Origin: Leptolyngbya sp. SIO1E4
GTDB taxonomy: Bacteria; Cyanobacteriota; Cyanobacteriia; Phormidesmidales; Phormidesmidaceae
NCBI GenBank assembly: GCA_010672825.2
Contig: JAAHFU020000001.1
Span: forward strand, 1 to 64,000
Length of the DNA stretch: 64,000 nt
Direction of reading: 5' to 3'
Position numbers and translations under genes: made by a program. Positions 12,958 through 64,000 of the stretch are shown in pieces (within the stretch, counting starts at the first letter, position 1; every line of letters begins with the position of its first letter). A model generated the notes under the pieces. That model was given only the letters and a program-made list of their open reading frames with translations. It searched no databases and was not told the origin of the DNA.

Positions 12958-13053
12958 TATAGCGGTGTGCATTTGGATCAAGCACACCCTAGACCCCAAA
13001 CCCTAGACCTTGCCTTCACCAAAACGTACTGAATTGACCTGAATAGGGCTATA
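12958..13053 (+). repeat. Heptamer-core dispersed repeat, copy A
   Basis: About 96 bp, from TATAGCGG to GGGCTATA. The core CCCTAGACCCCAAACCCTAG is two alternating heptamers, CCCTAGA and CCCCAAA. It lies upstream of the kinase gene at 13224. Confidence 0.85.
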
Positions 13054-15917: not shown

Positions 15918-16004
15918 CAAGATGAAGCATACCCTAGACCCCAAACCCTAGACCCCAAACCCTGCCTTAACCCAGACATCCTGGACTCCACTAAACAAGG
16001 CTAC
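15913..16004 (+). repeat. Heptamer-core dispersed repeat, copy B
   Basis: Starts TATAGC, ends GGCTAC, with four clean heptamers (CCCTAGA CCCCAAA, twice) in the core at about 15931-15960. Its first bases supply the TAG stop of bioD, and it fills almost the whole gap to the convergent response-regulator gene. Confidence 0.9.
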
Positions 16005-35074: not shown

Positions 35075-35170
35075 TGTAGCCTTGTCCAGTTGAGTCCAAT
35101 ACATCTGGGTCAAGACAGGGGCTAGGGTTCGGGGTCTAGGGTGTACTTAAACAGCCTGCATACCGCTATA
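35075..35170 (-). repeat. Heptamer-core dispersed repeat, copy C
   Basis: Minus orientation: TGTAGCC to CCGCTATA, core GGGGTCTAGGGT. Lies between the dioxygenase-like gene and P450. Confidence 0.85.
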
Positions 35171-36631: not shown

Positions 36632-37251
36632 TGCGCTCTATCCAAGGTGAAGGAAGGGTGATCCTAGCGTTATGCCTTGATGATAGATGAGCAGATAATT
36701 GTTTGCAGAGAGCGCGATGGGCGATGATCCAATGCTTCGCGACAGACGATCGCGTGATCAGAGCGGAAAAACTACCCGCATCCACTACGGCAACCAATTC
36801 AGAAACACCGTCCTAGAGACCCATCGGTATGGCCCTTCATCCTTATCAATTATTGCAGAAGAGCAAAGGTGTTTTAACTCAAGCAGCTTTTATATTTTAA
36901 AGGCAATAATAGGGATATCGAAACAACCGCTGTTCATCATGAATTGAAGCGGGTAAATCAGTGTATTCACCCGTGTATACAGCGTTTCTCACTCTGATGA
37001 AGTACTCGCCTTAGACCTCAAACCCCAGACCCTAGACCCTATTGCGACCAGGATGTACCTCACTCAGCTAAAAAAGGCTGTATAGGCTCTATAAAGAAAC
37101 GAATGATTGGTGAACGCTCACTGTTTTCAATCACAGAATATCCATCATCAATCTTGGATTTGAACGCCCAAAAGTCATTCAAGTACAAGCATTTTCAATC
37201 TGAGTAAACTGCACGCTTAAAGAACCGTCGTTGGAATTGGAGTTGAAAAAC
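36632..37251. other. Intergenic region between P450 and molybdenum hydroxylase operon
   Basis: 620 bp containing diverged repeat copy D (36976-37084). Otherwise I see only short frames without support. It should hold the operon promoter, not identified. Confidence 0.4.
36976..37084 (+). repeat. Heptamer-core dispersed repeat, copy D (diverged)
   Basis: Begins TATACAGCG and ends GGCTGTATA. The core near 37010-37041 is a drifted run of CCCCAGA, CCCTAGA and CCCTATT units followed by the conserved GGATGTAC. Confidence 0.7.
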
Positions 37252-44322: not shown

Positions 44323-44353
44323 TGTATAGCCTCTTGAGTTTAGTGCGGGAAGA

Positions 44354-44413
44354 AGGGTTTAAGGTTTAGGATTTGAGGTCTAGGGCATGTTTGATTCACA
44401 TGAGAAACGCTAT
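44354..44413 (-). repeat. Heptamer-core dispersed repeat, decayed copy H
   Basis: Minus orientation, half copy: drifted heptamers GGGTTTA, AGGTTTA, GGATTTG, AGGTCTA, then CATGTTTGATT and a CGCTATGG end. Confidence 0.55.
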
Positions 44414-56086: not shown

Positions 56087-56182
56087 TATAGCCTTGTTCA
56101 GGTGAGTCCAGTACATCTGGGTCAAGACAGGGTCTAGGGTTTGGGGTCTAGGGTGTGCTTGATTAGCATGCATACCGCTATA
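56087..56182 (-). repeat. Heptamer-core dispersed repeat, copy E
   Basis: Minus orientation, TATAGCC to CCGCTATA, core GGGTCTAGGGTTTGGGGTCT; near-identical to copy F in reverse. Begins 10 bp after coaT. Confidence 0.9.
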
Positions 56183-56214
56183 TTTGTGTTAGGACAATCC
56201 AGATAACTCAATTG

Positions 56215-56241
56215 CCCTCTGCCTTCTGCCCTCTGCCTTCG
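56215..56241. repeat. Heptamer tandem array (CCYTCTG type)
   Basis: CCCTCTG, CCTTCTG, CCCTCTG and a partial fourth unit. It lies 33 bp after copy E and just before the terminator of the next gene. Confidence 0.75.
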
Positions 56242-56668: not shown

Positions 56669-57278
56669 TAGAGAAGTCCTCATAGAAGTATTGATTGACA
56701 CTATTCTCTAGGGCGGCTTCGCAGGGTTTATGCACACAGTCGAGGAATTTCTCAGAAAAAAGTTTCTGGCGAGGCCGCCAAAATCGCTCAATCGACCCTA
56801 CAGCAATCAGTTCTCCGGTTTCTTGGCGACTCAGTACACCCGTGATCTAGCCCTCCCCTGATACCAGTTCTCGTTTCTAAAGCTACAGATCAGACCCCTC
56901 CCAGCCTCCCCTTGCCAAGGTGAGGTGCCGCAGGCGGTGGGGTGGCGATGTGTAGCGCTGATTTGGAGAATGGGTATTAGAGGAGGTCTCCAGCACGCTT
57001 CTGGATCAGATAAGGACTTATTGCACCTGAGATGCTAGTTAGGACAATCAGATTCCCTGAAATCCTTATGCAGCAAAGTTTTGATTTCTGCCTTCTGCCT
57101 TCTGCTTTCTGCCTTTTGCTATATGTCTTTGCAAAGGTGAGGTGCCGCAGGCGAAGGGGTGCCAACGCAAAGGATGAGCGAGATCGCCAAGGCATTGGCA
57201 ATAACGGAGAGATTTTGTTGCCGTCCAGCAGTTACAGGCAGATTCTGAAATGCTTGCCACGCATGACAAAGCTCTCGA
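56669..57278. other. Intergenic region with repeats
   Basis: 610 bp without a gene I can support. It holds a 20-bp direct repeat (56917-56936 and 57134-57153, AAGGTGAGGTGCCGCAGGCG) and the heptamer array at 57086-57120. Confidence 0.5.
57086..57120. repeat. Heptamer tandem array (TTCTGCC type)
   Basis: Five units: TTCTGCC, TTCTGCC, TTCTGCT, TTCTGCC, TTTTGCT. It is preceded at 57039 by TTAGGACAATC, which also precedes the 56215 array (TTAGGACAATCC near 56189), so the two loci share flanks. Confidence 0.8.
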
Positions 57279-61074: not shown

Positions 61075-61099
61075 ACCTTCTGTAGATCTAGGGTCTCGT

Positions 61100-61148
61100 T
61101 GAGTTTGGGACATCTGGGTCAAGGGGGTTTGGGGTCTGGGGTCTGCGT
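61100..61148 (-). repeat. Heptamer-core dispersed repeat, partial copy G
   Basis: Minus orientation fragment: GGACATCTGGGTCAAG followed by GGTTTGGGGTCTGGGGTCTG. The distal end is missing. Confidence 0.65.
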
Positions 61149-61376
61149 TACCCGCAGGCAAATTGCGACAGCGTTAGAAGGGGCAGCGATCGCCGGGCAG
61201 CCTCTCACCGCCTACGGATCCTCGTATAGCGGTATGCAGGTTAATCAAGCACACCCTAGACCCCAAACCCTAGACCCTGTCTTGACCCGGATGTACTGGA
61301 CTCACCTGAACAAGGCTATATCGCTGACTCGGTCGTCTGGACACCCTATCTCAACCGATATCTCGGCCTGCAGACG
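61148..61376 (+). pseudogene. Reading frame interrupted by repeat copy F
   Basis: The frame before copy F reads RRQIATALEGAAIAGQPLTA followed by YGSSY. Just after the repeat, the frame that starts at its last TAT reads IADSVVWTPYLNRYLGLQTR, then CV and a stop at 61375. Joined at TAT they form one continuous, protein-like segment of about 50 residues. This fits insertion of the repeat into a small gene, or a relic of one. Family not recognised. Confidence 0.4.
61225..61320 (+). repeat. Heptamer-core dispersed repeat, copy F
   Basis: 96 bp from TATAGCGG to AAGGCTATA, with the heptamer core CCCTAGACCCCAAACCCTAG. It is the reverse complement of copy E with only a few differences. Confidence 0.92.
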
Positions 61377-61435
61377 CGTTGCGTATGATGAGGGGGTTCA
61401 TTAGCCAGGAGACTATATGGGGTAATTGATGCACC

Positions 61436-64000
61436 ATGGCACCCGCACGGATTAGCAAGAGTCGAGCCAGCTATGCCCTAGAAACCGGAGAAGCCAAACT
61501 CTGGGCACTGCTGATTGGGGTTAACCACTATCAGGATGCACAGCTGCCGCCCTTGCGCTACCCAGCGATGGATTGCCAGGGGTTGAGCTACGCGATCGCC
61601 CAGGCGACAGCGCTGTTTCCCCGCAAGTCGATTACCGTGCACTGCAGCGGGGGCAGTGGGGAATCGGGGGCAGTAGACTCACCGATCAAGACGGCTTCAC
61701 TGCAGCTACCGCAACTCAACGCGGTGCAGCAAAGTTTGGCGGAGCTGGTGCAGCAGGCCCAGCCTCAGGACACGGTGCTGGTATATTTTTCTGGCCATGG
61801 GGTGTTAGGGGCAGATCAACAGCGGGCGGTGTTGTGTCTGGCAGACACTGACACCCAAGCCTTGAACACAACGGGCCTTAGCCTCGCAACACTTTTAGCC
61901 ACTCTCAATCAGTGTGCCGCCCGGCAGCAGCTCCTGTGGCTGGATGCCTGCCATAGCGGCAGCCTCACCCTGCGAGGGGGGAAAGATGCGACCCCGACCT
62001 TTCCCAATCCCACCGCTCAACTGATTGATGTGCTGCGCCAGCGCGCCCGCCAAAGCCAGGGGTTTTATGCCCTGCTGTCCTGTGACCAGCAGCAGCGCTC
62101 CTGGGAGTTTCCGGAGCTGGGCCATGGCGTATTTTCCTACTTTTTAATGCAGGGACTGTTGGGGGCAGCGGCCAATGGTCAGGGCATTGTTGAGGCGGAT
62201 GCCCTCTACAAATATGTCTATTACCAAACGCTGCGCTATATCGACACGGCCAATCAGCAGCTGCGGCTGATTAACCAGCAGCGACGCAGCCGGGGCGATA
62301 CCCAGCTGCTATCGGAGTATCCGCTACAAACCCCCAAGCGCATTGTCGAAGGGGTGGGGGAACTGGTGCTGGGGGTAACCCCGTCCTCACCTGCGATCGC
62401 TCCCTCCCGTCAGGCCATGATGGTGGCGGCAGACACGCCCACTGCCGAGCTGTTGCGCCTCAGCCAACAGCTTCAACAGCAGGGGGGGTTTGCCCTCCAC
62501 TACTGGTCACCGGGGCAGGGTTCTGAGTCGGTGCAGGAAAGTTTGGAGGCGAGGCTGAATGGGGCCATCGCCACTGAATTCCAACTCACTGCAGAAGACA
62601 TCAGCGGCGGTAAAGGCACCGGTGCACCGGAGAAGCCTACAGCCCAACCCTGGAAAGTTGCTGACAAATCGCTGCCGGGGATGCCATCTAATACTGCAGG
62701 CACCCTATTACTGTATCTACAGGGGGTGCTAGAGCAGACCCCAACCGGGGAAGCCTGGCTGCGCTTAGGCTCTGACACGCGATTGAGCCTGGCCTGGCTG
62801 CGCCAGCGCCTCCGGAGATCGCCCTACCCTCAGCAAATCATCCTTCTCGACTGCCCCGGTGCAGACACCCTGGAAGACTGGGTGGATGACCTCCAGCTCA
62901 ACGCTGATCACAACCAGGCCATTGTGGCTGGGGCTGCCCCGGAACCTGCCCAGTTTGCCGCCCTGCTACTCAATAGCCTCACCGCCCCCGAGCCCGAAAC
63001 CGGGCTGTCGATCGCAGGCTGGATAGCGCAATTACAGCAGCAGGCGGCAGAGACTGAGCTAACCTTACACACCTGGCTCTCTAGCCCGCGCGTGATTGAG
63101 GTGTTGTTGGGGCAGACCCGCGAGCGTGGGGCCTCTGAGCCAACAGCGGTGGATTTGGGCCTCTGCCCCTATCGGGGACTGCGGGCCTTTCAAATCGCCG
63201 ATGCCCCCTACTTCTTTGGGCGAGAGTCGCTGGTGCAGCAGCTCATGGCGGCACTACACCAGCAGTCTTTAGTGGCGGTGGTGGGGGCCTCCGGCAGCGG
63301 CAAATCGTCTGTGGTGCAGGCTGGGCTGCTGGCCCAGCTACGGCAGGGGCAGCAGATTCCCGGCAGCGATCGCTGGTGGCTGGGGTCCCTGCGCCCTGGG
63401 GAACAGCCGCTGACCGCCCTGGTGCAAACCCTGATCGATCCGGGGACAGAGCGGGAGCAGTTTTATCAGCAGCAGCAGTTGGAAGGGGTGCTGCATCAGG
63501 ACGTTGAAGGGTTTGTGCACTGGCTCCGCTCCCGACCTGAGCCCATGGTGGTGCTGGTGATCGATCAGTTTGAAGAGCTGTTTTCTTTAGCCGCCGCGAG
63601 CGATCGCCACCAGCTATTAACCCTGCTGCTCGGGGGTCTGGAGCATGCCCGCGATCGCTTCAAGCTAGTGCTGACCCTGCGCTCTGATTTTATGGCCACC
63701 GCCCTAGAAGACCCCGCCTTGGCAACCCGGCTGCCCCCGGCAACGGTGCTGGTGCCCCCAGTGTTAGCTGGGGAGGAGTATCGTCAGATCATCCTCAAGC
63801 CCGCCGAGAAAGTGGGCCTACAGGTAGAGCCTGCTTTGGTGGATGTCCTGCTGCAGGACTTAGGTCAGGGCATTGGCAACCTGCCCCTGCTGGAGTTTGT
63901 GCTAGAGCAGATCTGGCAGCAGCGACAAGCAGGCACGCTGCCCCTGGCAGCCTATCAACGCACTGTCGGTGGCCTGCAAGGGGCCCTAGAGCGCAAAGTC
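61436..64000 (+). CDS. Caspase-like peptidase fused to nSTAND NTPase (3' end outside window)
   Basis: At least 855 residues, still open at the window edge. The N-terminal caspase (peptidase C14) domain starts AKLWALLIGVNHYQ and has the catalytic His121 in YFSGHG and Cys172 in LDACHSG. Around 420-560 a second segment (LLLYLQGVLE, IILLDCPGAD) looks like a caspase fold without the His. An nSTAND1 domain follows from about 575: CPYRGLRAFQIADAPYFFGR, P-loop GASGSGKSS (about 617) and Walker B VLVIDQFEELF (about 708). Such proteins usually end in WD40 or similar repeats, expected beyond the window. Probable stress- or phage-triggered cell-death sensor. Confidence 0.9.
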   Translation, partial: MAPARISKSRASYALETGEAKLWALLIGVNHYQDAQLPPLRYPAMDCQGLSYAIAQATALFPRKSITVHCSGGSGESGAVDSPIKTASLQLPQLNAVQQSLAELVQQAQPQDTVLVYFSGHGVLGADQQRAVLCLADTDTQALNTTGLSLATLLATLNQCAARQQLLWLDACHSGSLTLRGGKDATPTFPNPTAQLIDVLRQRARQSQGFYALLSCDQQQRSWEFPELGHGVFSYFLMQGLLGAAANGQGIVEADALYKYVYYQTLRYIDTANQQLRLINQQRRSRGDTQLLSEYPLQTPKRIVEGVGELVLGVTPSSPAIAPSRQAMMVAADTPTAELLRLSQQLQQQGGFALHYWSPGQGSESVQESLEARLNGAIATEFQLTAEDISGGKGTGAPEKPTAQPWKVADKSLPGMPSNTAGTLLLYLQGVLEQTPTGEAWLRLGSDTRLSLAWLRQRLRRSPYPQQIILLDCPGADTLEDWVDDLQLNADHNQAIVAGAAPEPAQFAALLLNSLTAPEPETGLSIAGWIAQLQQQAAETELTLHTWLSSPRVIEVLLGQTRERGASEPTAVDLGLCPYRGLRAFQIADAPYFFGRESLVQQLMAALHQQSLVAVVGASGSGKSSVVQAGLLAQLRQGQQIPGSDRWWLGSLRPGEQPLTALVQTLIDPGTEREQFYQQQQLEGVLHQDVEGFVHWLRSRPEPMVVLVIDQFEELFSLAAASDRHQLLTLLLGGLEHARDRFKLVLTLRSDFMATALEDPALATRLPPATVLVPPVLAGEEYRQIILKPAEKVGLQVEPALVDVLLQDLGQGIGNLPLLEFVLEQIWQQRQAGTLPLAAYQRTVGGLQGALERKV

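What the first reader, a model, noticed from the sequence alone, without database searches (positions are those of the whole stretch)
61148..61376. Repeat copy F appears to split a reading frame at TAT
Sequence on the two sides of copy F joins at TAT into one frame of about 50 sensible codons (…YGSSY | IADSVVWTPYLNRY…). This would be direct evidence that the repeat moves, and would define its insertion site as TA(T).
Basis: partly seen in the sequence, partly recalled or inferred. Interest (0 to 1): 0.6.

Follow-up and report, generated by a model that had tools for sequence, protein, structure and literature searches.

The report
Cyanobacterial jumping mini-element; no split gene
The repeat is one of about two hundred copies of a tiny, protein-less transposable element that inserts at TA sites in a cyanobacterial genome, but the gene it seemed to interrupt here is almost certainly a chance reading frame.

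Summary
Copy F (61225-61320) is a real, full-length member of a 92-bp element with TA on each side. The genome (8.2 Mb) holds 194 matches to its right end; the reversed-pattern control has none. The repeat does move: for 15 of 106 copies examined an unoccupied paralogue of the insertion site lies in the sequence I held, and in 14 of the 15 the alignment is best when one TA is kept (one is a tie). The target duplication is therefore 2 bp, TA. Target sites favour ANNTANNT. Its ends match the right end of an IS630-family insertion sequence in the same genome (23/27 and 19/27). It is a MITE of the IS630/Tc1-mariner kind. The specific claim, a frame split by copy F, fails. The frame is open only if TATA is kept; with TA it stops at once. 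Its span is ordinary (47 of 106 copies reach it), its codon use is intermediate, and its upstream part runs through an older remnant of the same repeat. Peptide and DNA found only themselves in the genomes searched. New member of a known kind; low interest.

The parts
61227..61318 (+). Copy F: 92-bp MITE proper, TAGCGGTATGCA...GAACAAGGCTA
   Evidence: boundaries from other copies
61225..61226 (.). left TA of the target duplication
   Evidence: inferred for F from empty sites of other copies
61319..61320 (.). right TA of the target duplication
   Evidence: inferred for F from empty sites of other copies
61098..61156 (-). older decayed copy of the same repeat; the upstream part of the joined frame runs through it
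   Evidence: blastn 72%, E 3e-5; score 62 against a maximum of 35 in 500 shuffles
61099..61404 (+). mechanical TTG ORF of 101 codons that reads through copy F without a stop; not evidence of a gene
56087..56182 (-). full copy, 97.9% to the consensus
35077..35170 (-). full copy, 91%
12958..13053 (+). older full copy, 81%
15922..16003 (+). diverged partial copy, 80%
37016..37082 (+). diverged relative (flank and end TACAGCG...GGCTGTA), 76%
44325..44396 (-). weak remnant, 71%, E 0.002

Best explanation
Copy F is one insertion of a 92-bp non-autonomous DNA transposon (a MITE) moved by an IS630/Tc1-mariner-family transposase. The transposase would bind the imperfect terminal inverted repeats (TAGC..T.T.CAG...), cut the element out and insert it at a TA, duplicating the TA. 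Shown by sequence: copy number, TA duplication, ANNTANNT target preference, scarcity inside long frames, ends shared with an IS630-family element in the same genome. Inferred: that this transposase did the moving, the cut-and-paste route, and the TA duplication at F itself. Both copies of that IS found in this genome are broken, so movement today would need another source of transposase. Copy F lies between a 232-aa ORF and a caspase/nSTAND gene, next to an older copy; the frame it seems to split is chance.
For: 194 matches (up to 3 mismatches) to the 30-base right end, 0 for the reversed-pattern control. Of 106 distinct family copies examined with flanks, 96 have TA at both outer ends. Empty paralogous sites for 15 of 106; in the best hit of each, TA is best in 14 (one tied with TATA, L142) and TAT in 1 (L101); L050 against the empty site in L107 is 95/95 identical across the joint. 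A at -3 in 57/106 (p 1e-9) and T at +3 in 61/106 (p 1e-12) against distal flanks (a few copies share a landing repeat, so not all are independent). Frames of 100 codons or more span 23/106 sites against 360/530 nearby TA sites. The IS630-family element L070 is bounded by TA|TAGCGGTGTGCA at both ends; its right end matches the MITE left end 23/27 and right end 19/27, and the only window 27-mers at 19 or more, 6 of 127,946, are MITE ends. Three transposase relatives at 86, 85 and 83% identity (L145-L147) have TAGCGG ends 1,024-1,037 bp apart, TA included; L145 holds an open 315-aa IS630 transposase. In G022 the better IS end matches that genome's own MITE ends at 20/27 and 22-23/27 in the two copies compared.
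Against: No intact autonomous partner was seen here: two transposase places at E 1e-30 or better (all 22 candidates scored), L070 broken by an IS982-like ORF and L069/L087 matching only 564 of 597 bases of the right half. The other IS end fits worse: 18/27 and 15/27 here, 16-19/27 in G022. Terminal repeats are imperfect (19 of 29, counted). At 200 codons or more the spans do not differ (4/106 against 14/530; 600-base flanks limit this). No orthologous empty site in another genome was found for F, and none was sought for the other copies. 91 of 106 copies have no empty paralogue in the sequence held; 10 of 106 lack TA on one or both sides. F's own flanks do not fit the preferred target: T at -3, G at +3, and G at -1, which only 8 of 106 copies have.
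Confidence: 0.93

Rival explanations
1. One reading: copy F inserted into a real gene, leaving TATA at the joint, and split a frame of about 50 codons.
For: The TATA join gives an open 73-codon stop-to-stop stretch; its 46-codon end scores above about 92% of wrong-frame stop-free pieces.
Against: Empty sites of other copies show TA kept: TA beats TATA in 13 of 15, ties in 1, loses by one point in 1. No homologue. Ordinary length, codon score below 97% of true coding pieces, upstream part in a repeat remnant.
Confidence: 0.03
2. The repeat spreads by another route with no IS630 transposase, for example as a palindrome moved by a RAYT or IS200/IS605-type enzyme.
For: No intact IS630 partner with these ends seen in the genome; the minus strand folds somewhat better than shuffles (z -2.0).
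Against: 2-bp TA duplication, symmetric target preference and ends shared with IS630 elements. IS200/IS605 elements leave no target duplication (recalled).
Confidence: 0.04
3. The copies were duplicated together with their surroundings rather than transposed.
For: Seven copies sit in two positions of another repeat (L012, L114, L125, L061 and L134, L035, L050), so some may have been copied with it.
Against: Eight of the 15 empty sites lie outside that repeat, and 91 of 106 copies have no paralogue of their joined flanks in the sequence held.
Confidence: 0.02

Closest known systems
ISY100 (ISTcSa) of Synechocystis, IS630/Tc1-mariner family (PMC2170065; passages seen, part of the abstract among them)
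   Same: Inserts at TA and duplicates it; imperfect terminal repeats; IS630-family transposase.
   Different: ISY100 is autonomous; the element here has no gene. No sequence comparison with ISY100 was made.
IS630-family element of this genome (L070) and its relatives L145-L147
   Same: TA|TAGCGG(T/C)(G/A)TGC ends; right end of the L070 IS matches the MITE left end 23/27.
   Different: The relatives are about 1.02-1.04 kb with a transposase; the MITE is 92 bp with CCCTAGA/CCCCAAA-type heptamers inside.
Type I bacterial MITEs, including cyanobacterial ones (review PMC10969869, passages; Anabaena sp. 90, PMC3542288, passages)
   Same: Short, many copies, mostly between genes; type I means an IS with matching ends is thought to move it.
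   Different: The Anabaena sp. 90 MITEs were reported as type II, with no evident match to the IS ends of that genome; here matching IS ends exist. Nezha was seen only as a reference entry in the review and was not compared.
Sleeping Beauty target preference ANNTANNT (PMC2756404, one passage)
   Same: Same symmetric preference around TA.
   Different: A vertebrate transposon system; only the target pattern is compared.

Membership tests
IS630/Tc1-mariner-type MITE | short element without a transposase gene, many copies | tested here: met
   92 bp; 194 matches to its right end
IS630/Tc1-mariner-type MITE | 2-bp TA target duplication | tested here: met
   best in 14 of 15 empty paralogous sites, one of them tied; 1 of 15 best with TAT
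IS630/Tc1-mariner-type MITE | terminal inverted repeats | tested here: met
   imperfect, 19 of 29 with TATAGC perfect
IS630/Tc1-mariner-type MITE | ends shared with an IS630-family element | tested here: met
   23/27 and 19/27 to the right end of the L070 IS, 18/27 and 15/27 to its left end; NF033545 for relative L145 (191 bits) and for L069 (110.7 bits; cut-off 100)
IS630/Tc1-mariner-type MITE | intact transposase source in the same genome (usual, not strictly defining) | tested here: not met
   two close places, both broken; other IS630 elements such as L066 and L067, ends TAGCAATCCG, are present
IS630/Tc1-mariner-type MITE | transposition observed | not testable with these tools
   needs an assay or re-sequenced strains
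gene split by copy F (reader) | joined frame open with the real target duplication | tested here: not met
   TA join gives YGSSYR*
gene split by copy F (reader) | homologue of the joined frame | tested here: not met
   only itself; 0

The most novel reading that the evidence does not exclude
A lineage-restricted MITE family amplified to about 200 copies by an IS630 element whose own copies in the strain are now broken, with an internal heptamer array that grows and shrinks in steps of 7 bp (element lengths 82, 89, 96, 103), so that one element is both transposon and minisatellite. A bolder addition, not excluded: copy F interrupted a young, lineage-specific small gene whose target site was later altered.
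Probability: 0.3. Interest if true: 0.3.

Novelty: new member of a known kind. Interest (0 to 1): 0.2.

Why it matters
It corrects a tempting but wrong proof of transposition (a chance frame) and replaces it with sounder evidence: empty paralogous sites that fix the target duplication at TA, and an IS630-family partner with matching ends. The many near-identical copies make the strain a convenient case for studying MITE bursts and ANNTANNT target choice in bacteria.

Tried and rejected
Tried without result: homologues of the joined peptide; Pfam on it (one chance-level hit, UPF0060, E 0.047); exact empty junction in genome contigs (the window's own genome may be left out there); joined flanks in the family; the element in 387 other genomes of the class (only G022, but at most 2 candidates were scored per genome, so a weak negative, with up to 14 scored, also found only G022 among 62 family genomes). 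RNA fold of copy F: plus strand z -1.2, minus strand z -2.0; not followed further. Literature listings; no paper naming this element was seen in them, but no search was made with its sequence, and most subscription papers are not held.

Considered and rejected: a 4-bp TATA duplication (TA scores higher in 13 of 15 best hits, equal in L142, one point lower in L101); target TAT (best only in L101, where the empty paralogue has one extra T).

Rows dropped before counts: hits overlapping MITE-like segments by more than 20 bases and hits with under 15 bases on either side of the TA, copies not aligned from base 4 or earlier to base 93 or later, or with under 150 bases of flank, and the three G022 loci. 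The 106 copies come from the window and the loci I fetched and include some older ones of 71-89% identity; they are not a census. One search counts 194 and lists 100; I fetched 54 of the 70 listed places that had no locus, the other 16 being held. Searches scored only 40 of 548 and 40 of 197 candidates.

Full report
What is there. Copy F occupies 61225-61320 and reads TATAGCGGTATGCAGG...GAACAAGGCTATA. The window holds further copies at 56087-56182, 35077-35170 and 12958-13053, and partial or diverged ones at 15922-16003, 37016-37082, 44325-44396 and 61098-61156. The whole genome (8.22 Mb, 12 contigs) has 194 matches to the 30-base right end with up to 3 mismatches, 101 forward and 93 reverse; the reversed pattern has none.

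Does the finding's frame exist? As arithmetic, yes: keeping TATA at the joint gives ...AYGSSYIADSVVWTPYLNRYLGLQTRCV*. But it needs four retained bases. With TA the frame ends at once...YGSSYR*, and with TAT it passes into another frame. The longest six-frame span over the joint for copy F is 73 codons with TATA; 47 of 106 copies reach that, and for TA (72 codons, another frame) 59 of 106. The codon score of the 46-codon peptide is intermediate: 3% of 4000 in-frame pieces of 29 long window ORFs score as low, and 7.6% of 4408 stop-free wrong-frame pieces score as high.

Homologues. The joined peptide finds only the two halves of itself among 58 relatives plus the own genome and among 388 genomes of the class including the own (the sets overlap). 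The joined DNA finds only itself in 63 family genomes, own included, with at most 13 candidates scored per genome. The exact junction with TA and 0 to 3 further bases is absent from genome contigs (the window's own genome may be left out there).

Does the repeat move? Yes. I collected 106 distinct copies with 150-base flanks from the window and fetched loci. For each I joined the flanks and searched the sequence held (419 kb, partly redundant). Fifteen copies have an empty paralogue; with nothing, T, TA, TAT or TATA at the joint, the best hit scores best with TA in 14 (L142 ties with TATA) and with TAT in one (L101). Seven of the 15 lie in two positions of another 96-bp repeat, of which L107:630-725 is an unoccupied copy; L050 matches it 95/95 across the joint. 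One of the other eight, L022, sits in an older copy of the same family. So the target duplication is TA and the element proper is 92 bp, 61227-61318 for copy F. The duplication at F itself is inferred, since no empty paralogue of F was found.

Target choice. A stands three bases before the TA in 57 of 106 copies and T three bases after it in 61 of 106, against about 25% in distal flanks (p 1e-9 and 1e-12); G just before the TA is rare (8 of 106) and C just after it is rare (4 of 106). The pattern is ANNTANNT, the preference stated for Sleeping Beauty in PMC2756404 (one passage). Copy F has none of this: T at -3, G at -1, G at +3. Copies are scarce inside long frames: frames of 100 codons or more span 23 of 106 sites, against 360 of 530 nearby control TA sites; at 150 codons 9 of 106 against 249 of 530; at 200 codons, where the 600-base flanks limit the test, 4 of 106 against 14 of 530.

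The partner. Pfam DDE_3 gives 20 matching places in the genome. One element, L070, is bounded by TA|TAGCGGTGTGCA at both ends; it carries IS630-family transposase pieces and is broken by an ORF with an IS982-like transposase match (below the NCBIfam cut-off, above Pfam's). A second copy (L069, L087) matches only 564 of 597 bases of the right half. With all 22 candidates scored, these are the only two places in the genome that match the transposase at E 1e-30 or better. The IS right end matches the MITE left end 23/27 and the right end 19/27, the IS left end 18/27 and 15/27; in the window the only 27-mers at 19 or more to the IS right end are MITE ends, 6 of 127,946. Of 63 family genomes, own included, 20 have a transposase match at E 1e-30 or better; the closest others, L145, L146 and L147 (86, 85, 83%), have TAGCGG ends 1,024-1,037 bp apart. 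L145 holds an open 315-aa IS630 transposase (NF033545, 191 bits against a cut-off of 100). G022, the genome of L147, also holds 71%-identical MITEs (three matches); in the two compared, the better IS end matches their ends at 20/27 and 22-23/27, the other at 16-19/27. Named loci with the same ends and spacing suggest that G022 is Oscillatoria sp. CS-180, G066 filamentous cyanobacterium CCT1 and G032 Leptolyngbya sp. SIOISBB (inferred).

How it most likely works. An IS630/Tc1-mariner transposase binds both ends, cuts the element out and joins it to a TA, as described for ISY100 (PMC2170065, passages). For this element the ends, the TA duplication and the target preference are shown; the enzyme and the cut-and-paste route are inferred. 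Of 82 copies of 96 bp at 92% identity or more, 8 equal the consensus and 25 differ from it at one base, so a recent burst is likely.

Known or new. It works like, and by the tested features other than an intact partner belongs with, IS630-type MITEs. Lengths of 82, 89, 96 and 103 bp (5, 1, 89 and 5 of 106; 4 are 95 and 2 are 97) suggest a varying heptamer array inside. It is a new member of a known kind; the particular finding, a split gene, is not supported.

Noticed in passing
L107:630-725: An unoccupied copy of a second, palindromic TA-bounded repeat (TACAGC...GCTGTA, 96 bp) that is a landing site for the MITE in seven of the copies examined.
   Followed up: partly
L050, L054, L005, L061: MITE copies of 103 or 82 bp: lengths change in steps of 7 by gain or loss of internal CCCTAGA/CCCCAAA-type heptamers.
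   Followed up: partly
61436-64000: Gene with an N-terminal caspase domain (PF00656) and an nSTAND1 NTPase domain (PF20703), running off the window.
   Followed up: no
L070:960-1430: An ORF with an IS982-like transposase match inside the IS630-family element, breaking it.
   Followed up: partly
L066 and L067: Two IS630-family elements of about 950 bp with the same ends (TAGCAATCCG) and the same transposase score, apparently intact.
   Followed up: no
817-939: Stretch of the window similar to joined flanks of several MITE copies (L101, L104, window 56087-56182), probably another dispersed repeat.
   Followed up: no
56213-56240 and 57086-57119: Heptamer tandem arrays (TGCCCTC, TTCTGCC), like the short tandem repeats of cyanobacteria known to me by recall.
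   Followed up: no
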